From the IMG/VR virus record IMGVR_UViG_3300044798_000675, positions 1 through 37,941 of that record: a stretch of 37,941 nucleotides of DNA; one strand, written 5' to 3'. The notes beneath the pieces were generated by a model that made no database searches, had not been told where the DNA came from, and saw only the letters and a list, made by a program, of their open reading frames with translations. Below are positions 8,092 to 20,988 of this stretch, piece by piece. Origin of the DNA: a virus. Positions within the stretch are counted from its first letter, which is position 1. Each line of letters begins with the position of its first letter. A program made the translations under genes and the position numbers.

Positions 8092-8336
8092 CCATCCTCG
8101 AGGCAGAGCGGATCCGGATGCCGTTTGGCAAGCATCGCAATCTCACGCTGGCGGAGATCGCCGCGGTGGACGTGCTCTACTTGGACTGGCTGGCCGGGCT
8201 GACGAATCTCGATGCCTACCTGCGCGAGGCCATCGACTTGCTCTGCAAGAAACACGAACGCGCGATCGACAAGGCCATGGAGACAGGCGGCCGGCGCGAA
8301 TACAGCGACCGCCGCCAGGGGAGGCTTTTCGGATGA
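8088..8336 (+). CDS. DUF3820-type small protein
   Basis: The 82-residue product has the core RMPFGKHRNLTLAEIAAVDV followed by YLDWLAGL. This matches the small DUF3820/exonuclease-X C-terminal fold (MPFGKxKGxxLxEIPxxYLxWLA). Such modules bind DNA or accompany exonucleases. A basic C-terminal tail follows. It is coupled on both sides (ATGA at 8088 and start of the primase-like gene at 8333), placing it in the replication operon. Confidence 0.75.
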   Translation: MTILEAERIRMPFGKHRNLTLAEIAAVDVLYLDWLAGLTNLDAYLREAIDLLCKKHERAIDKAMETGGRREYSDRRQGRLFG

Positions 8337-9754
8337 GCATCGAGCACAACGACGATCTGGCGCGCGCCAAGGATGCGCTGACGATCTTCCGACTCTGGGA
8401 GGCGGCCGCATTGCCCGGACCCGTGCCGCAGCATGATGGGATGTATCGAAGCCCGTTCCGGGAGGAACGCACGCCGAGTTTTTCGATCACCAAGGGCGGC
8501 CGCGTATGGTGCGACTTTGGGGGCGATGCCGCGGCCAAGGGCGGTGTGTGGGAATTTGCGCAGCGATGTCCCTGCTGGGCCGGCGCGGCGAACGACAATG
8601 CGGCGATGGCGAAGGTGCTGATCGAGGTATCGGGCATCATGCCGACGCGCCCACGAGCTGCTGGCGCCGGCGAGACGGCCGCGCCGGCGGTGGATCCGCG
8701 GCTCGAGCGGGCGGCAAAGACGATCGAGCGGCGCGAACGGCTGAGCCAGGCGGTGGACGCCGCCTACGCGCGGCGCGAAGCGGCACTGCGGCCGGGCGTG
8801 GAGTGGCGCTTTCTGCCAGCGTGGCCCGTTTTCGTGGCAGAACGTTATGACGAGGGGAGATCGGTGCTGTTATCCGACGCCAGGCGGGCAAGCGAGCTGG
8901 CCAAAGCTCGTGGCTGGCCGGAAGAGTGGGTGTGGGAGCTGCTCGATCGAGAATTGCTGAGTTGTCCTTGGGAGCGCTGGTCGGATCCGGCCGATCAGCA
9001 TGCCCGCCGGCAGAAAGCCTTCCGGGTGGATTTCCCGGTGGTCGACCAGGTGGGCAGCGAACTGACCGTGAACCTGCAGCCGGTGGGTTATCACCAGCGC
9101 ATGTATATTCCGGCCCGGGGCGGCGAACGGGAGCGCAAGCAATGGATTTTCGTGCCGAGTTTTCCCAAGGAAGCGGCGCGATCGGAATTCGAACGCAAGA
9201 TCGTGTGCTGCGGCCTCGAGCGCGGGCTGAAATACGAGCCGGGCGAGGGCGGCATGCGCGCGACGTTCCTGCCGCCGCTGCCGTTTGTGCTCGGCGATCT
9301 GCAGCGGCCGCGGCTGCTGGTCCTGCTCGAGGGCCAATGGGACGCGATCACGTTTTTCGGAGCCTGCGGATGGTTCCATGACACGACGCCGGCGTCGGGC
9401 GTGGCAGTGTTCGGCATCCGCGGCGTGCAGGGCATGGACGTGTTCCTGGCCTATTGGAGCCGCTGGCTGCGCTGGCACAAGCCGCTGGCATGGGTGATCG
9501 CACAGAACGATCCGGCGTCGCTCGCCTGGCGTCAGGCGCCGGTAGTGCAGCCGGGCGAGCTGCAGGTGCCCAGCCTAGCGGACCGGCTGGCACATGCGGG
9601 CTGCCGTGACGTGAAGCTGAGCTGGTTGCGGCCGAATCCGACATGGGGGAAGGATTTCAATGACTATTATCGCGCCGGGCGGCCGACGCTCGAGGCAATG
9701 TGGCGCTGGATGGACCGGGTGGGCGTGACTGGCGCGAACGGAGGCTGGGCATGA
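8333..9754 (+). CDS. Primase-like protein with degenerate zinc-binding module and Toprim-like core
   Basis: The 473-residue protein starts with a segment laid out like a CHC2 primase zinc ribbon (YRSPFREERTPSFSITKGGR, then VWCDFGGD). The first Cys-His pair of CPFH is lost, so the metal site is degenerate. A Toprim-like block lies near residues 322-380 (LLVLLEGQWDAITFFGACG, with Glu as candidate catalytic residue, then GVQGMDVFLAYW). The acidic pair after it is hard to place. Together with the downstream helicase gene it forms a two-gene primase-helicase pair. It presumably makes primers or loads at the phage origin. The ATG at 8333 overlaps the preceding stop. Confidence 0.7.
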   Translation: MSIEHNDDLARAKDALTIFRLWEAAALPGPVPQHDGMYRSPFREERTPSFSITKGGRVWCDFGGDAAAKGGVWEFAQRCPCWAGAANDNAAMAKVLIEVSGIMPTRPRAAGAGETAAPAVDPRLERAAKTIERRERLSQAVDAAYARREAALRPGVEWRFLPAWPVFVAERYDEGRSVLLSDARRASELAKARGWPEEWVWELLDRELLSCPWERWSDPADQHARRQKAFRVDFPVVDQVGSELTVNLQPVGYHQRMYIPARGGERERKQWIFVPSFPKEAARSEFERKIVCCGLERGLKYEPGEGGMRATFLPPLPFVLGDLQRPRLLVLLEGQWDAITFFGACGWFHDTTPASGVAVFGIRGVQGMDVFLAYWSRWLRWHKPLAWVIAQNDPASLAWRQAPVVQPGELQVPSLADRLAHAGCRDVKLSWLRPNPTWGKDFNDYYRAGRPTLEAMWRWMDRVGVTGANGGWA

Positions 9755-11427
9755 GCGACGTCGGCGAAAAGCCTGACGACGGGAAAGTCGTGCCGTTTCC
9801 GGGCGCGGTCGCGTCGACGGCCGCCGCGGCCGTAACCGATGCCGGTCCGGCGCCGGCGCCTGTTGGTGAGGGAGTGAGTGATAAAAAATTGCCGGCGGTG
9901 GCGTCGAATGTGGAAGAGAAAACCGGAGAGGCGAAAAAGTCTTCCACCGTGCCGGAGGATCCTATTGCGGCGTTCGAGACCAAGGCGGGGCTCGACGAAT
10001 ACTGGTATGAGGAGACGTCGGCCCGATTCTGGCTCGTGAACGAAGCCGGGGCATGGGTGGATTTGTCAGAGGGCGGCTTCAAGCGGCACCTGAAAAAGAA
10101 AGGCCTGCGCGACAAGGCGGCGCCGGCGGCCGTGGCGGCCGGCAAGCCGATCAGCGAGATGGATGAGGCGCTGCATCGCGTGGAGACGGAGCGCCGGGTG
10201 GTATTTGCCGGCCTCGTGGCGGGCTACCGACGCGGGTTGCATCTCATCACCGGGCGGCGCGTGCTGGTGACGGAGGATCCGGTCATCATCGAGCCGGTGG
10301 CGGGGGAGTGGCCGATGCTGCAGGAGTTTTTCAAGCGGCTGTTTTTGGGCAGCGAGCCGACGGGCGAAGAAGGCAAGGTGATCGAGATCGATCAGCGGCC
10401 GCGGATGTACGCCTGGCTGCAACACGCTGCGCAGTGCTTTTATGGAGGGCTGACGGATCCGGGGCTGGCATTGTTCATCGCCGGCGAACGGGAGGGCGGG
10501 AAGAGCTTTTATGCACGCATCCTGCGCTGGATCCTCGGCGGAAGGGTGGGGCGGCCGTACGACGCGATGATCGGCCGCGATCAGTTCAACCGCGATCGTG
10601 TCGAGGCCGTGCTGCAGCTCATCGATGACGACAACCAGGCGGATACGCGCATCGAGGCGCGCCTGAAGTTCGCCGGATCGATCAAGCAGTTTGTGGCAAA
10701 CAACGAGTACCGGCTGCGCACGATGCATCGCGATGGGTTTTCGATCGAGTCGCTCGCGCGGCTGGTGGGCCTGGTGAACCTGCAGGCGAGCCGGCTGATG
10801 GTGCTGCCACCCCTGGACAGTGACATCACGGACAAGCTGATAATTTTCAAGGGATACAGGACGCCGCCGCCGGCGCGGTCGATAACGGCCGACACGCCGG
10901 CGGAGGAGGCCTGTTGGCCGGCGCCCATGCCCACGCGCACGATCGAGGAGAAAAGGGCTTATCGCGCACGGATGAAGGGCGAGCTGCCCGCGTTCCTTTG
11001 GTGGTTGTTGAATGAGTTCAAAATGCCGTCGTCGGTGTCGGGCGGGCGCTTCGTGGTGCGGAGCTGGGTGCATCCCCAAGTGGAGGCCATGCTGCATGAG
11101 TTCAGCCCGCACGTGCGGCTGTGGCAGCTCATCGTGCGGAGCAGGGTCATCTTCGAGGAGTTCAAGGGCGATGGGAACACCGCGCCGGACTGGGTTCGAC
11201 GTCCGGAGTGGAAGGGCACGGCCACCGATATGGAGCGCGTACTCAAGAATGAGCCATCGAAACTGACAATCGATGAGCGCCGCGAGGTCAAGGTGGCGGC
11301 CTGGCTGGGACAGAGCCTCCAGGCATGCGCCGAGCACTTCGGTGAGGAGCACTGCCAGCTGACGCGCGGATCGCGCCGGATCTGGGTGTTGCGACCGATG
11401 AAGGACGACTTGGAGGGGTTGGATTGA
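9751..11427 (+). CDS. Replicative helicase, SF3/D5-like (DUF5906 type)
   Basis: The 558-residue protein has a low-complexity N-terminal 75 residues followed by a D5/DUF5906-type ATPase. Walker A is GEREGGKS with Lys251 and Ser252. Walker B is LQLIDDD with Asp at 292-294. The C-terminal 150 residues look like a winged-helix region. This family drives unwinding at phage and virus origins. The start at 9751 overlaps the primase-like stop (ATGA), and translation as a pair is likely. The gene is followed directly by the nested-repeat region at 11428-11710, which would be a natural place for an origin. Confidence 0.85.
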   Translation: MSDVGEKPDDGKVVPFPGAVASTAAAAVTDAGPAPAPVGEGVSDKKLPAVASNVEEKTGEAKKSSTVPEDPIAAFETKAGLDEYWYEETSARFWLVNEAGAWVDLSEGGFKRHLKKKGLRDKAAPAAVAAGKPISEMDEALHRVETERRVVFAGLVAGYRRGLHLITGRRVLVTEDPVIIEPVAGEWPMLQEFFKRLFLGSEPTGEEGKVIEIDQRPRMYAWLQHAAQCFYGGLTDPGLALFIAGEREGGKSFYARILRWILGGRVGRPYDAMIGRDQFNRDRVEAVLQLIDDDNQADTRIEARLKFAGSIKQFVANNEYRLRTMHRDGFSIESLARLVGLVNLQASRLMVLPPLDSDITDKLIIFKGYRTPPPARSITADTPAEEACWPAPMPTRTIEEKRAYRARMKGELPAFLWWLLNEFKMPSSVSGGRFVVRSWVHPQVEAMLHEFSPHVRLWQLIVRSRVIFEEFKGDGNTAPDWVRRPEWKGTATDMERVLKNEPSKLTIDERREVKVAAWLGQSLQACAEHFGEEHCQLTRGSRRIWVLRPMKDDLEGLD

Positions 11428-11439
11428 CCATGAATACGA

Positions 11440-11464
11440 CGGCATTGACGGCATACGTCGGCAT
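11440..11464 (+). repeat. Left arm of 25-bp perfect inverted repeat
   Basis: The arm contains two GACGGCAT words and an ACGTCGGCAT word in tandem. It is exactly complementary to 11668-11692, and pairing stops at both ends of the arm. The related words ACGTCGGCAT, ATGACGGTAT and TGACGGCA also occur at 15625-15651. Confidence 0.85.
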
Positions 11465-11667
11465 GCATGGCCGCTACTCACTTACGGAAACAAGCGGGCG
11501 GGCGCGGGTTTACGCGATTAACGACGGCATGACGGCAAGAGGGGGAGTTTTCGCACATACGCGCGCGCGTGTACTTGGGTGTGCTCGCGAAATGATAGAG
11601 ATATGCTGTCGTGCCGTCGTAAGAGAGGGTTTCAGCAGTGAAAGCATGGCATCGTGTGGCTGGATCG

Positions 11668-11692
11668 ATGCCGACGTATGCCGTCAATGCCG
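11668..11692 (-). repeat. Right arm of 25-bp perfect inverted repeat
   Basis: This is the exact reverse complement of 11440-11464, with 203 bases between the arms. It ends 18 bases before the ATG of the HTH gene at 11711, so folding of this arm in mRNA could influence translation of that gene. Confidence 0.85.
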
Positions 11693-11710
11693 ACGGTGGG
11701 GTGCCTGACC

Positions 11711-12124
11711 ATGCCGGAACGCAATCGAGCACAGTCAGAGGAGCAACAGGCCGGGCAGATCGAGGAGGCCAGCCTCGCCACCTGGCGTCATCCGGTCGAC
11801 GAGATCGAACCCGAGTCAGGGCAAGACACCTACTTGGCGCTGTTGGGTGGCAACACCGATGCTGCCGATATCTTCCGTCGACTGTTCGTGATGTGCCTGC
11901 CACCCCGCACCTACAGTGATCTGCGCCATGTGCGTGGGGCGTATCATCGTATGGTTGCCCTGGCCTTCACTGTGGCACCGGAGGTGTTCGAGGGGCGCAC
12001 CGCGAAGACGGTGGCTCAACAGTTGGGCATCACACCACGTTGCTTCATGGATCACCTGGCAGAGGTGGCTCGCATGATGCGGCAGCGTCGTGAGGCGGCC
12101 GTCAAGGCGACGGATGGATTGTAA
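11711..12124 (+). CDS. Small helix-turn-helix protein at the early/late boundary
   Basis: The 137-residue product begins MPERNRAQSEEQQAGQIEEA and is mostly helical. Near the C-terminus it has an HTH-like block (TAKTVAQQLGITPRCFMDHL, about residues 98-117). I chose the ATG at 11711 because the frame upstream runs through the inverted repeat. It lies immediately after the nested-repeat region and immediately before the late genes, the usual place for a phage late activator or antiterminator. That role is inferred from position alone. It could also be an origin-binding protein for the adjacent repeats. Confidence 0.65.
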   Translation: MPERNRAQSEEQQAGQIEEASLATWRHPVDEIEPESGQDTYLALLGGNTDAADIFRRLFVMCLPPRTYSDLRHVRGAYHRMVALAFTVAPEVFEGRTAKTVAQQLGITPRCFMDHLAEVARMMRQRREAAVKATDGL

Positions 12125-12128
12125 AAAA

Positions 12129-12160
12129 AGACGGGTCCTTTTTACGGTCCCCACCCGTCT
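12129..12160 (-). terminator. Intrinsic terminator-like hairpin, leftward orientation
   Basis: AGACGGGT (12129-12136) pairs perfectly with ACCCGTCT (12153-12160). On the minus strand the stem is followed at once by seven T (complement of A12123-A12129), the form of a Rho-independent terminator for leftward transcripts. On the plus strand no T run follows closely. It would stop any leftward RNA entering from the late-gene side, although no leftward gene is visible there. Confidence 0.55.
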
Positions 12161-12237
12161 CAGGTTCCGCGTGATTTTTCAGGTTCTCCGAGTGAGGTGA
12201 TCAAAAATCTAGGTTAACTTTGCCTTTAGTGAAAGAT

Positions 12238-12256
12238 GGTTCACGTCGCGCCCCTT
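12238..12256 (+). promoter_or_regulatory. Late-module motif, copy 1 (before small terminase)
   Basis: This copy reads GGTTCACGTCGCGCCCCTT and fits the consensus GGTTCAYSYCGCGCCCCTT shared with 15655 and 18195. It ends 11 bases before the ATG at 12268. It is the first signal in front of the late gene block and is preceded by an AT-richer stretch (12170-12237), which might hold a promoter. Confidence 0.5.
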
Positions 12257-12267
12257 AACTGAGGGCC

Positions 12268-13026
12268 ATGAGTGAAGAAAAACCGATCCGAAACGCTGAC
12301 CTGGCGCGACATTGGCGCTGTTCACCGGCCTATATCACCAAGCTGAAGCATGCGGCGAGCGCCGGCGGGAAGGGCATGCCTGATTTCACGAGCCTCGAGG
12401 AGGCCGACACCTGGCGTTCCGTGCACGCTCCGCCCAAACCCGGGAATCATCCTTCGTTGAATGGGGACCATGGAGGGGGAAAAAATTCGGACATTGGTTC
12501 CACCACAACTGGCAAGGACAAACCAAGAGGGCTAAGCGACAAAATCATCGACATCGCGCAGTTCATCCGGAGCGGAAAAAATTTCGAGAGCATGATGATC
12601 GAGGACGCCGAGCACGTTCCGCAGATCGCCTTCGGATTATTCGAGCTCGCGAGCAAGGAGGGCAACTCATCGGAGATCTCCGCGGCGAGCAAGAACTGGC
12701 ACGAGTGCTCGAAAGCCGCGGCGGCGGTCCGCAACGAGTTTCTCGACCTGCAGGAACGCACCGGGGCGCTCATCTCACTCGATGAAACGATGGACGTCAT
12801 CGGCATGGAGCTGCAGGCGGTCCGCGGAGGCCTGCTCAAACTCGGCGAGCGGCTGGCCAATCAGGCAAACCCGCAGGATCCCGCGCTCGCGCGGCGCGTC
12901 ATCGACCTCGGGGTGGATGGGATTTTCCGGCAGATCGAAGCCGTGGTGGAGCGGGCGGGGGTGGCCGCAGGTTCGCCGGTAAACATTCCCTCAGTCGGGG
13001 CGATACGGGCGGGGGTCGCATCGTGA
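12268..13026 (+). CDS. Terminase small subunit (putative)
   Basis: The 252-residue protein opens with a winged-HTH-like DNA-binding segment (NADLARHWRCSPAYITKLKH), as in Nu1-type small terminases. A Gly/Ser/Pro-rich linker (about residues 60-90) follows, then a helical oligomerisation and large-subunit-binding half. It directly precedes the large terminase, with one small gene between. Small terminase selects phage DNA for packaging and positions the large subunit. The identification rests on domain layout and neighbours, as small terminases diverge fast. Its stop overlaps the GTG of the following gene. Confidence 0.75.
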   Translation: MSEEKPIRNADLARHWRCSPAYITKLKHAASAGGKGMPDFTSLEEADTWRSVHAPPKPGNHPSLNGDHGGGKNSDIGSTTTGKDKPRGLSDKIIDIAQFIRSGKNFESMMIEDAEHVPQIAFGLFELASKEGNSSEISAASKNWHECSKAAAAVRNEFLDLQERTGALISLDETMDVIGMELQAVRGGLLKLGERLANQANPQDPALARRVIDLGVDGIFRQIEAVVERAGVAAGSPVNIPSVGAIRAGVAS

Positions 13027-13421
13027 ATGGCTCGCGGGTCATCTGCGTCGATTTCGACGGAGTCCTATGCCGCCGCGCCGGGCCATGGCGCGGGGCCGGG
13101 CACGTCGAGGGAGAACTTATTCCCGGCGCCGCTGAGGCGTTGATCGCCTTGCTGGATCGATATCGCGTGGTGATTCACACGTCGCGCGCCCTGGTCCCGG
13201 AAGGAAAGCAGGCGGTGCATCAATGGCTCATAAAACAGGGATTGGGCGGCCTCTACGTCAATGTCCAGGGGGAAAAACGCTGGGCCCGGAACTATGTGGA
13301 TGATCGCGCGGTTTGTTTTCGCGGGGACTGGCGGGCGACGATCCGCGAGATCCGGAATTTCACGCCATGGACGGAGATTGAAGCGGGGCAGGGTGGGGCG
13401 GCGCCGGAGGCTGTATCATGA
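13023..13421 (+). CDS. HAD-superfamily phosphatase-like protein
   Basis: The 132-residue product has the HAD nucleophile motif CVDFDGVLC (Asp10 and Asp12), the motif II residue in VVIHTSRA and the acidic motif YVDDRAV near the end. This matches small phage HAD proteins whose C-terminus reads like IDDRAxxFxGxW. It starts with GTG in a GTGA overlap with the small terminase stop, and its stop overlaps the large terminase ATG. The substrate is unknown; 5' or 3' end processing of nucleic acid or nucleotide dephosphorylation are possibilities. Its place between the two terminase genes is notable. Confidence 0.8.
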   Translation: MNGSRVICVDFDGVLCRRAGPWRGAGHVEGELIPGAAEALIALLDRYRVVIHTSRALVPEGKQAVHQWLIKQGLGGLYVNVQGEKRWARNYVDDRAVCFRGDWRATIREIRNFTPWTEIEAGQGGAAPEAVS

Positions 13422-15352
13422 TCGCGACCGCTGCCGGTGTACGATTCCGCGCGTTCGTCCGGTCCTTCTTTCGCTACGAAGAACGCCTCACGCCCTCGCA
13501 ATGGGTCGAACGCCATGTGCGGTTGCCTCCCGGCAAACAGGAGACGGAGCCCGGCCGGGTCAGTTTCAAAACGCGGCCCCATCTGCGCGAGCCATTGGAC
13601 AGCTTCGCGGACCCCACACTCACGGATATCGTGATCGTCAGTTATACGCGCGGCGGCAAGACATTCGTGTTGCGCATGGTATTCTGCTGGTCGGTCGCCG
13701 GCGATCCTGCGCCCATGCTTTGGATCGATATCGATGAGGATAAGGCCAAGGACATATCTAAAAAAGAGATCCAGCCGCTCATCGAATACAATGAATGCCT
13801 GCGGGCCCGGAAGCCTGCCAATCGCCACAATTTCACGGATCTGCGCATGCTCTTTCCGGCGGCTGCCTTTACCATGGGTGGTGGTCAGGCCGTCAGCCAG
13901 GTGGCCGGCGATAACGTCAAGCGCATCCTCGGCAACGAACTCGATAAATGGCACGGGAAAACCGACAAGGAGGCTTCAATCCCCGAGCTCGCTCGCCACC
14001 GCACGGAGAGCTTCGATGACGAGCGCAAACATGGCTGGGGCTGCACGCCGACGATCGAGGAAATGCCCACCTGGCAATATCACAACCGCGGTGATCAGCG
14101 CCGTTGGTTTGGCCCCTGTCCGCGCTGTGGCACATTTCAGCAACTTGTCTGGCGCGATGAAACCACCGGCGCCGGCGTCGTCTGGGATCCGCAGGCAAGA
14201 ATAGCCTCTGGCAAATGGGATTTCGCCCGCGTCAAGGCCTCCGCGCGTTATTCTTGCGTCAATACCGCCTGCACCGCGCACGATTCTGATGGTACTCGCG
14301 GCACCGGTCTCAATGACGACGAACGCCGCGCCCTTATCCAGGATGAGCGTGCTCACTGGCGCCCCACGGCTATCGGCCAGCCTGGCTGGCGTTCCTACCA
14401 GTTCAACGGCCTCTATGGGCCGAAGAAATCCAACAACTGCGGCGAACTTGCCGTCGATTTCCTCTCCGCGCGCACGACCGGCTTTTATGCGGACCGGCAG
14501 GATTTCTGGAATTCCCGCATGGGCCTGCCCTGGCGCGATGAAATTACCCTCATCACCGCCAAAAAATTTGCGGACCGCGAGAAATCGCCTGGCGGCCAGA
14601 GCTATCTGCGTGGCGAGATGCCCGCCGGCTGGCGCCCCAACGTCGTCATCATCGGCGCCGACGTGCAGGCCAACCGCCTGCCCTATGTTGTGGCCGCGGC
14701 CGACTGGGCCGGCAATGCCTGTACTATTGATCACGGTGATGCCCCCACCTGGAAGGACCTGGAACAGGTGCAGAACGATTACCGCAAGCTCGGCGCCACT
14801 TCCTACGTCATCATCGATATCAATTATGAGGATCGCCGCGCCGAAACGCTCGAGCAGATCTATTTCCGGCGCGACCGCGGCTGGTATGGCGCCGAGGGCG
14901 TCGAGTTCGCCCGGGATCTCGTGCGCCTCGAGCACGCGAACGTTTACGCCGGCGGCAAACTCCAGGGCAAACGCGAGGATGAGCAACATAAGATCGTCAA
15001 GCTCGTCATCTCGACCTACCAGTTCAAGGTCGAGCTCGAGAAGCGGTTCGCCGGCAAGATCGCCAACTGGTTTTCCTACCAGCTCCCGCTTGCGGCCGAG
15101 GACCGGGAACGTGAAGAGCAGGCCGACTACTATGCGCAGCTCCTCGACGAACGCCGCGTGCCGCGCCGGATCCGCATCTCGGGCAAGCCGCCGTTCGAAT
15201 TCAAGGCCCGCACAAAAAACAACCATTTCTTCGACGGCTGGGTCTACATCCTCGCGCTTTTCTGGGTGCTGCAAAAGAAGCACAGCTTCGCCGCCCGCAA
15301 GCGCCTCGCCGCGGCCGGCGAGACGCGCAAGGTCATCGAGGTCAAACGATGA
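13418..15352 (+). CDS. Terminase large subunit, lambda gpA family
   Basis: The 644-residue packaging motor and nuclease belongs to the GpA group. The N-terminus has the conserved PSQWVERHVRLPPGKQ opening. Walker A is SYTRGGKT with Lys81. A zinc-ribbon-like pair of cysteine motifs (CPRC near residue 235, then CVNTAC) lies between ATPase and nuclease. The nuclease domain starts at IIGADVQANRLPYVV, whose Asp is the expected metal ligand. It cuts and translocates phage DNA into proheads. The overlap with the HAD gene (ATGA) and GGAGG upstream support the start at 13418. Confidence 0.92.
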   Translation: MIATAAGVRFRAFVRSFFRYEERLTPSQWVERHVRLPPGKQETEPGRVSFKTRPHLREPLDSFADPTLTDIVIVSYTRGGKTFVLRMVFCWSVAGDPAPMLWIDIDEDKAKDISKKEIQPLIEYNECLRARKPANRHNFTDLRMLFPAAAFTMGGGQAVSQVAGDNVKRILGNELDKWHGKTDKEASIPELARHRTESFDDERKHGWGCTPTIEEMPTWQYHNRGDQRRWFGPCPRCGTFQQLVWRDETTGAGVVWDPQARIASGKWDFARVKASARYSCVNTACTAHDSDGTRGTGLNDDERRALIQDERAHWRPTAIGQPGWRSYQFNGLYGPKKSNNCGELAVDFLSARTTGFYADRQDFWNSRMGLPWRDEITLITAKKFADREKSPGGQSYLRGEMPAGWRPNVVIIGADVQANRLPYVVAAADWAGNACTIDHGDAPTWKDLEQVQNDYRKLGATSYVIIDINYEDRRAETLEQIYFRRDRGWYGAEGVEFARDLVRLEHANVYAGGKLQGKREDEQHKIVKLVISTYQFKVELEKRFAGKIANWFSYQLPLAAEDREREEQADYYAQLLDERRVPRRIRISGKPPFEFKARTKNNHFFDGWVYILALFWVLQKKHSFAARKRLAAAGETRKVIEVKR

Positions 15353-20073: not shown

Positions 20074-20988
20074 ATGTCTTCCATTTCGCTTCCGCGCATC
20101 GCGACCGGTAAAACCGGCGCGCGCTCCCTCAACGTCGTCATCGCCGCGATCGAGGCCGCGCTCAATGGCGTCTTGCCGGATACGGTCATTATCGCCGGCG
20201 TCACCGGCCTCCAGGATGCCCTCGACCTGAAGGCGCCGCTCGCCTCGCCCGCCCTCACCGGCAATCCCACCGTCCCCACCCAGGCCGGCGGCAATAATTC
20301 CACCCGCGCCGCCAGCACCGCGTTCGTCGCCGCGGCCGTCGCCCCCCTCGCTCCCGCTGCCAGCCCGACCTTGACCGGCGTGCCCGCCGCACCCACCGCC
20401 GATCCTGGCACCAATACCACGCAGGTCGCCAGCACCGCCTTCGTCGCTGCGGCCATCGCGCCCCTTGCGCCCGCCGCCAATCCCACCCTGACCGGCGTGC
20501 CCGCCGCACCCACCGCCGTTCTTGGCACCAATACCACGCAGATCGCCACCACCGCCTTCATCAAGGCGGCGATCGATGCTCTCCTCGCCGGAGCCCCGGG
20601 CGCCCTCGACACCCTTCACGAGCTCGCCGATGCCCTCGGCGATGACGCCAGCTACGCGGCCACGATCACCAGTGCCCTCGCGCTCAAGGCGCCGCTGGCC
20701 AATCCCGCCTTGACCGGCACGCCAACCGCACCCACCGCGGATCCCGCGACCAACAGCACGCAGCTCGCCAGCACCGCTTTCGTCAAAATCGCCGCCGATG
20801 CCGCTGCGGCCGCCAGCCAGCCCAAGACCGGCAACATTTTCGCGGTGGCCACCCTTCCCGCCGCGGCCTCGAACGTCGGCCGTGTGGTCTATTGTTCCGA
20901 CGGCAACGCCGGCGCGCCCTGCGCCGCCATCTCCGACGGCACCCATTGGAAGGTCATCGCCCTCGGCGCCACCTGCGCGATCGAGTGA
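20074..20988 (+). CDS. Repeat-rich fibre protein, likely head fibre/decoration
   Basis: The 304-residue product holds four copies of a fibre repeat of the form ALTGxPxAPTAxxGTNTTQxASTAFV, beginning near residues 52, 89, 129 and 204. Between copies 3 and 4 lies a GALDTLHELADALGDD linker of the kind seen in tail fibres. The C-terminus (TLPAAASNVGRVVYCSDGNA to GTHWKVIALGATCAIE) is a small beta domain. Such repeats are known from tail fibres and from phi29-type head fibres. Its place directly behind the capsid, far from the tail-tip genes, favours a head fibre or capsid decoration. The repeats are Ala/Thr/Pro-rich. The leader before the ATG is pyrimidine-rich with no Shine-Dalgarno. Confidence 0.75.
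   Translation: MSSISLPRIATGKTGARSLNVVIAAIEAALNGVLPDTVIIAGVTGLQDALDLKAPLASPALTGNPTVPTQAGGNNSTRAASTAFVAAAVAPLAPAASPTLTGVPAAPTADPGTNTTQVASTAFVAAAIAPLAPAANPTLTGVPAAPTAVLGTNTTQIATTAFIKAAIDALLAGAPGALDTLHELADALGDDASYAATITSALALKAPLANPALTGTPTAPTADPATNSTQLASTAFVKIAADAAAAASQPKTGNIFAVATLPAAASNVGRVVYCSDGNAGAPCAAISDGTHWKVIALGATCAIE

What the first reader, a model, noticed from the sequence alone, without database searches (positions are those of the whole stretch)
11440..11692. Nested, RNA-compatible inverted repeats right after the helicase gene
The sequence shows an outer 25-bp perfect inverted repeat and, inside it in correct nested order, four further stems plus a GC-alternating apex. The 17-base inner stem differs from perfect symmetry at two places, and both changes become G-U pairs in RNA. 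That argues for selection on an RNA fold (or at least for a cruciform kept over time). No convincing gene occupies the region. Its location behind primase-helicase genes is that of a phage origin; the short iteron-like GACGGCA words support an initiator-binding role. A non-coding RNA that folds as one long hairpin is the main alternative, a MITE-like insert with 25-bp ends the third.
Basis: partly seen in the sequence, partly recalled or inferred. Interest (0 to 1): 0.72.

Follow-up and report, generated by a model that had tools for sequence, protein, structure and literature searches.

The report
Mirror-image phage replication origin
The nested repeats are very probably the place where this phage starts copying its DNA: short binding words for its own helicase laid out as a mirror image around a central tract, a layout that related phages keep although each uses a different word.

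Summary
Arms 11437-11464/11668-11695 match at 27 of 28 bases and are the best inverted repeat in the window; an inner pair, 11521-11537/11604-11620, matches at 15 of 17. The best explanation is an iteron-type replication origin directly behind the gene of a D5-family (SaPI-Rep-like) helicase. The arms are built from 7-base words (GACGGCA/GTCGGCA) spaced 8-10 bp, pointing inwards, around an alternating purine-pyrimidine core. Relatives keep position, orientation, spacing and mirror symmetry but use other words (GACAGCA, GACGGTT, GTGACAG, TGACGGGG, CGACACC and others). Integrase-helicase elements without a detected terminase carry the same layout, so it follows the helicase and not packaging genes. 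The helicase C-terminus is predicted as a winged helix. Selection on an RNA fold is not supported: only 4 of 22 arm mismatches in the family are G·U on the gene strand. A MITE and a conserved protein are rejected. Unexpectedly, in six of seven phage-type loci one forward frame stays open across the whole origin and abuts its neighbours by stop/start junctions, although its protein sequence is not conserved; the origin seems to sit in a translated carrier frame. Function is inferred, not shown.

The parts
9700..11427 (+). D5-family (DUF5906) helicase gene, the proposed initiator; the C-terminal part encoded by 11071-11424 is predicted as a winged helix
   Evidence: PF19263 E 1.2e-6; Foldseek matches D5/E5, NrS-1, SaPI5 primase-helicase; C-terminal model pLDDT 86.7
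8333..9754 (+). gene upstream of the helicase, probably a primase (only a weak zinc-ribbon match)
   Evidence: Zn_ribbon_DnaG E 0.06; conserved at the same place in L005, L006, L010
11425..11432 (+). TGACCATG: helicase stop, two bases, start of the carrier frame
11430..11708 (+). carrier reading frame open across the whole origin (ATG 11430; TTG 11424 also possible)
   Evidence: open equivalents in L005, L006, L010, L018, L022
11437..11464 (+). outer left arm, three words pointing right at 11438-11444, 11447-11453, 11457-11463 (spacing 9, 10)
11521..11537 (+). inner left arm, two words pointing right at 11523-11529 and 11531-11537
11552..11574 (.). alternating purine-pyrimidine core, strongest such run in the window
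11590..11604 (.). short A+T-rich stretch (12 of 15) on the right side of the core, a candidate melting site
   Evidence: read from the sequence; similar stretches at the same side in relatives
11604..11620 (-). inner right arm, words pointing left (11604-11610 variant, 11612-11618)
11668..11695 (-). outer right arm, three words pointing left at 11669-11675, 11679-11685, 11688-11694 (spacing 10, 9)
11706..11713 (+). TGACCATG: carrier-frame stop, two bases, start of the next gene
11711..12124 (+). next gene, small protein with a weak helix-turn-helix/sigma-like match; kept in L005 and L006

Best explanation
This is the phage's replication origin. Subunits of the D5-family helicase encoded just upstream bind the inward-pointing iteron arrays through their C-terminal winged helix. 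The two mirror-image half-sites load two helicase complexes facing each other, and these melt the alternating/A+T core between them to start bidirectional replication. The long RNA or cruciform pairing follows from the mirrored iterons and is not the selected product. In this phage the origin also lies in an open frame that lets translation pass from the helicase to the downstream genes. Shown here: the architecture, conservation of layout with changing words, the link to the helicase, and the open frame. Inferred: binding, melting, replication and translation.
For: Words are clustered, 9 in 257 bp, and convergent. Relatives L005, L006, L010, L018 have matching inverted arrays right behind the helicase with different words, L019 a looser one. 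The same arrangement occurs behind many helicases found in 23 Verrucomicrobiota genomes. It occurs in integrase-helicase elements with no GpA terminase detected nearby. The helicase is of the D5/DUF5906 type with a predicted C-terminal winged helix. SaPI Rep and SCCmec Cch2 recognise iterons directly downstream of their genes through the C-terminal domain (PMC7581432). The strongest alternating purine-pyrimidine run lies at the core in seven of seven close loci. An iteron array also lies behind the D5-type primase-helicase of Streptococcus phage Javan389.
Against: No binding or replication data. The core is not clearly A+T-rich (maximum 55% A+T in 40 bp). GC skew changes sign near 13-14 kb, not at the site. 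Several distant helicases (L015-L017, L025, L026, L030, L038) lack a clear array behind the gene. The exact mirroring of spacers and word variants is more than simple iterons require.
Confidence: 0.87

Rival explanations
1. A packaging (cos/pac) site: the words bind the small terminase subunit, whose gene lies shortly downstream.
For: terS and terL follow in the window, L005, L006, L010 and L051; terminase sites also use repeated words.
Against: The layout is present in integrase-helicase elements with no GpA-type terminase within about 12 kb downstream, and it keeps its distance to the helicase while the distance to terS varies (L010 about 1.1 kb, L018 about 0.4 kb from the helicase end).
Confidence: 0.04
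2. A structured non-coding RNA or an mRNA hairpin kept for its fold.
For: Fold z -6.0; arms change on both sides and stay complementary in WIN, L005 and L006 (15 of 28 pairs).
Against: The complement folds nearly as well (z -5.2). Arm mismatches are not biased to G·U on the gene strand (4 against 8 on the other). Only the word arrays pair, and the words repeat directly within an arm, which a hairpin does not need. No Rfam match.
Confidence: 0.04
3. A real small protein gene (94 aa) whose coding constraint dominates.
For: The frame is open and joined by stop/start junctions in six of seven phage-type loci; in L075/L076 an array lies inside a gene with similar ends.
Against: Codon log-odds -0.26 against +0.14 to +0.42 for the genes used as reference; GC3 0.58 against 0.84 in the helicase. 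Almost no amino-acid similarity. No Pfam or PHROGs match.
Confidence: 0.03
4. A MITE-like insertion with 25-28-bp ends and TGACCATG target duplications.
For: Identical 8-bp direct repeats at 11425-11432 and 11706-11713.
Against: Single copy in the record; relatives have an equivalent in the same slot with other sequences; the 8-bp repeats are not adjacent to the arms and are stop/start junctions, one also seen in L005.
Confidence: 0.01

Closest known systems
SaPI Rep/ori replicon (staphylococcal pathogenicity islands) and SCCmec Cch2 with its putative origin
   Same: A D5-type helicase, a C-terminal DNA-binding domain, and short iterons directly downstream of the helicase gene (PMC7581432)
   Different: Two nested, exactly mirrored array pairs; an alternating purine-pyrimidine core; an open frame through the site; lineage-specific words; here in Verrucomicrobiota phages
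Phage P4 alpha protein with ori/crr (from general knowledge)
   Same: Primase-helicase initiator with a C-terminal winged helix that binds short repeats
   Different: P4 uses two separate sites and a fused primase-helicase; here one site directly behind a separate helicase gene and no second cluster of the words
Phage lambda ori inside gene O (from general knowledge)
   Same: Iterons and melting region embedded in a translated sequence
   Different: In lambda the carrier gene is the initiator itself and the iterons are direct; here the carrier frame has no conserved protein and the arrays are inverted

Membership tests
SaPI-type Rep/ori (D5 helicase with downstream iteron origin) | Initiator is a D5-family self-loading helicase | tested here: met
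   DUF5906 above its cut-off; Foldseek top matches are D5/E5 and NrS-1, with SaPI5 primase-helicase lower in the list. Self-loading itself is not testable here.
SaPI-type Rep/ori (D5 helicase with downstream iteron origin) | C-terminal DNA-binding domain in the helicase | tested here: met
   Winged-helix model with pLDDT 86.7; generic winged-helix matches at Z about 5. Fold only; binding not shown.
SaPI-type Rep/ori (D5 helicase with downstream iteron origin) | Multiple short iterons directly downstream of the helicase gene | tested here: met
   and relatives
SaPI-type Rep/ori (D5 helicase with downstream iteron origin) | A+T-rich or otherwise easily melted region | tested here: inconclusive
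   Only a 15-bp stretch is 80% A+T (11590-11604); the core is an alternating tract. Distant relatives have A+T-rich cores.
SaPI-type Rep/ori (D5 helicase with downstream iteron origin) | Helicase binds the iterons and drives replication | not testable with these tools
   needs biochemistry or a plasmid test
Phage cos/pac site | Found with terminase genes | tested here: not met
   Same layout in elements with no GpA-type terminase detected
Known structured RNA family (Rfam) | Match at or above a curated score | tested here: not met
   Only a tRNA at 458-531
RNA hairpin under selection | Mismatches biased to G·U on one strand | tested here: not met
   4 G·U(+), 8 G·U(-), 10 neither
MITE | Several dispersed copies with the same ends | tested here: not met
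   Single copy in the record; the arm scan of viral contigs gave one chance-level match. Host genome not held.
Protein-coding gene | Conserved amino-acid sequence and gene-like codon use | tested here: not met

The most novel reading that the evidence does not exclude
The origin is built to be translated: a stop-free alternating purine-pyrimidine core replaces the usual A+T-rich one so that ribosomes can pass from the helicase to the downstream genes. The mirrored half-sites are read as whole composite sites by two facing helicase rings, and each lineage carries its own word as a private replication code that changes together with the helicase C-terminus.
Probability: 0.3. Interest if true: 0.62.

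Novelty: new variant of a known kind. Interest (0 to 1): 0.52.

Why it matters
It gives a recognisable signature (inverted short iterons directly behind a D5-family helicase) for finding replication origins in uncultured phages and small integrated elements, shown here for Verrucomicrobiota. The matched sets of words and helicase C-termini make it possible to test how self-loading helicases choose their origin and whether word choice decides compatibility between elements. The open frame across the origin suggests a simple way for a phage to keep an origin inside an operon without stopping translation.

Tried and rejected
Helicase search against annotated phages: no match. DNA search against phages: none. 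Single-protein scans of viral contigs with the helicase, the 94-aa ORF and the next gene: none; the terminase scan gave the key relatives. L011, found by an exact 18-mer of the arm, matches only 19 bases and is taken as chance. Profile search of the PDB by sequence gave no real relative. The alternating tract's score in the window alone is not exceptional (183 of 1000 core shuffles and 10 of 60 whole-window shuffles reach it); only its position across loci is. GC skew was not decisive. No end repeat or attachment-site repeat was found between the window ends. Two distant D5-type phage helicases (Vibrio phage 13VV501A, Microbacterium phage Brahms) showed no clear array behind the gene; Streptococcus phage Javan389 did. 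P4 alpha's origin-binding domain was not seen among the structural matches listed, which does not exclude kinship.

Full report
What is there. The outer arms 11437-11464 and 11668-11695 match at 27 of 28 bases and form the best inverted repeat of the window. The inner arms 11521-11537 and 11604-11620 match at 15 of 17. Shuffled versions of the region gave no arm scoring 10 or more; the observed score is 25. As RNA the region folds at z = -6.0, its complement at z = -5.2, so folding does not favour one strand. Both arms are made of a 7-base word, GACGGCA or GTCGGCA. Nine of the window's 35 such words lie in 257 bp; all on the left point right and all on the right point left. The centre is an alternating purine-pyrimidine tract (11552-11574) followed by a short A+T-rich stretch (11590-11604).

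Relatives keep the layout and change the word. Terminase and helicase searches gave phage contigs L005, L006 and L010 and Opitutales loci L018 and L019. Each has inverted word arrays directly behind the helicase: GACAGCA in L005 (28/28 arms), GACGGTT/A in L006 (28/28), GTGACAG in L010 (17/17), TACGGTAA/TTCGGTAT in L018 (24/25), and a looser TGACRGTA array in L019. A search of 388 genomes of the Opitutales locus's phylum (taken to be Verrucomicrobiota) with the helicase profile found 23 genomes with matches. Many of these show the same arrangement with other words: TGACGGGG (L024), CGACACC (L044), TGAAGGGG (L045, L050), TGCGGAGG (L034), TGGGCGTAC (L033), GCGTCAG (L047). A most-frequent-word test against shuffles gave p below 0.05 in about half of the loci tested; the layout is not universal, and L015-L017 lack it.

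Why an origin. The position directly behind the helicase and the inward orientation recur, while terminase genes do not: L053/L071, L062/L072 and L063/L073 are integrase-helicase elements with chromosomal-type genes around them and no GpA-type terminase within about 12 kb. Other terminase families were not searched exhaustively there. The helicase carries DUF5906; its full-length model is moderate (pLDDT 66.5) and its best structural matches are D5/E5, NrS-1 and, lower, the SaPI5 primase-helicase. The last 118 residues model well (pLDDT 86.7) as a winged helix, with Z about 5 to many winged helices, which supports the fold and not a specific relative. SaPI Rep recognises, through its C-terminal domain, an iteron origin directly downstream of its gene, apparently as two hexamers; the SCCmec helicase Cch2 binds direct repeats in the same position (PMC7581432).

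Mirror symmetry beyond the word. In the window, L005 and L006 the outer arms have three words spaced 9 and then 10 bp, mirrored on the other side together with the spacer base and word variants; 15 of 28 pairs differ on both sides among the three loci. This exceeds what separate binding sites for one protein would need. Two facing helicase rings that read the whole half-site would explain it; homogenisation by template switching is another possibility. Neither is shown here.

RNA selection tested. Over 17 arm pairs there are 22 mismatches: 4 would be G·U on the helicase strand, 8 on the other, 10 on neither. The two G·U sites in the window are therefore not evidence for an RNA fold.

Alternating core. 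In the window, L005, L006, L010, L018, L019 and L022 the strongest alternating purine-pyrimidine run of the whole held sequence (4.5-38 kb) lies within 300 bases behind the helicase; a naive joint probability is about 5e-12. L076 repeats this and in L075 the run at the array is second. The score alone is not exceptional in the window, and most distant elements have an A+T-rich centre instead.

The open frame. In the window, L005, L006, L010, L018 and L022 a forward frame is open across the whole 270 bases behind the helicase (shuffle p 0.017-0.05 each; by my own arithmetic about 3e-5 combined by Fisher's method). L019 and most terminal origins of small elements are not open, although some distant loci are. 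The frame starts at or near the helicase stop (TGACCATG, TGATG, ATGA, GTGA) and in the window, L005, L006 and L018 ends at the next start. Its codon use and protein sequence are not gene-like. In L075 and L076, related by terminase but with a fused Prim-Pol/D5 helicase, an array with alternating core lies inside a gene whose start looks alike in the two phages. Alternating tracts contain only RYR and YRY triplets and stop codons are YRR, so such a core can carry no stop in any frame. I infer that translation through the origin is useful; this is untested.

Limits. There is no experiment. Relatives are mostly 35-58% identical in the helicase, so fine-scale evolution cannot be followed. The family sample was not weighted by a tree. 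The mirror and G·U counts use arms chosen by best match. The host assignment (Verrucomicrobiota, Opitutales) rests on relatives only.

Noticed in passing
L075:3280-3460 and L076:3685-3860: An inverted word array with an alternating core lies inside an apparently real gene between a fused Prim-Pol/D5 helicase and a homologue of the window's 11711 gene.
   Followed up: partly
L063:4913-8212 (with L073): A helicase-plus-array element sits next to a Cas9-like gene (HNH_4, RuvC_III) and what looks like a CRISPR repeat array.
   Followed up: no
L044:3019-3190: A second, 38-nt inverted repeat (CCAAGGAGCGGCGGTTTGTG...) about 240 bases behind the helicase, looking like a dispersed bacterial repeat.
   Followed up: no
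L007:2246-2337: A 46-nt arm inverted repeat with no gap (80% complementary) upstream of the small terminase gene of a related phage.
   Followed up: no
window 11711-12124; L005:2129-2506: The gene behind the origin has weak sigma-70 region 4 / helix-turn-helix matches; it could be a late regulator or a second origin-binding protein.
   Followed up: partly
window 12000-14000: GC skew changes from positive to negative although the main genes keep their direction; may mark a replication or packaging boundary.
   Followed up: no
window 20218-20824: Direct repeats of about 151 nt, 67-77% alike, at spacings of 117 and 222, inside a probable tail-fibre gene.
   Followed up: no
L081:3803-4162 (Streptococcus phage Javan389): A GGTTACC/GGTAACC iteron array lies in the gap behind the D5-type primase gene; not annotated as an origin in the features listed.
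   Followed up: partly
G083 (L031, L046 and two further matches): One genome holds four copies of the helicase, two of them with their own TGACGC-type or TGTCACC-type words behind them in the loci read.
   Followed up: no
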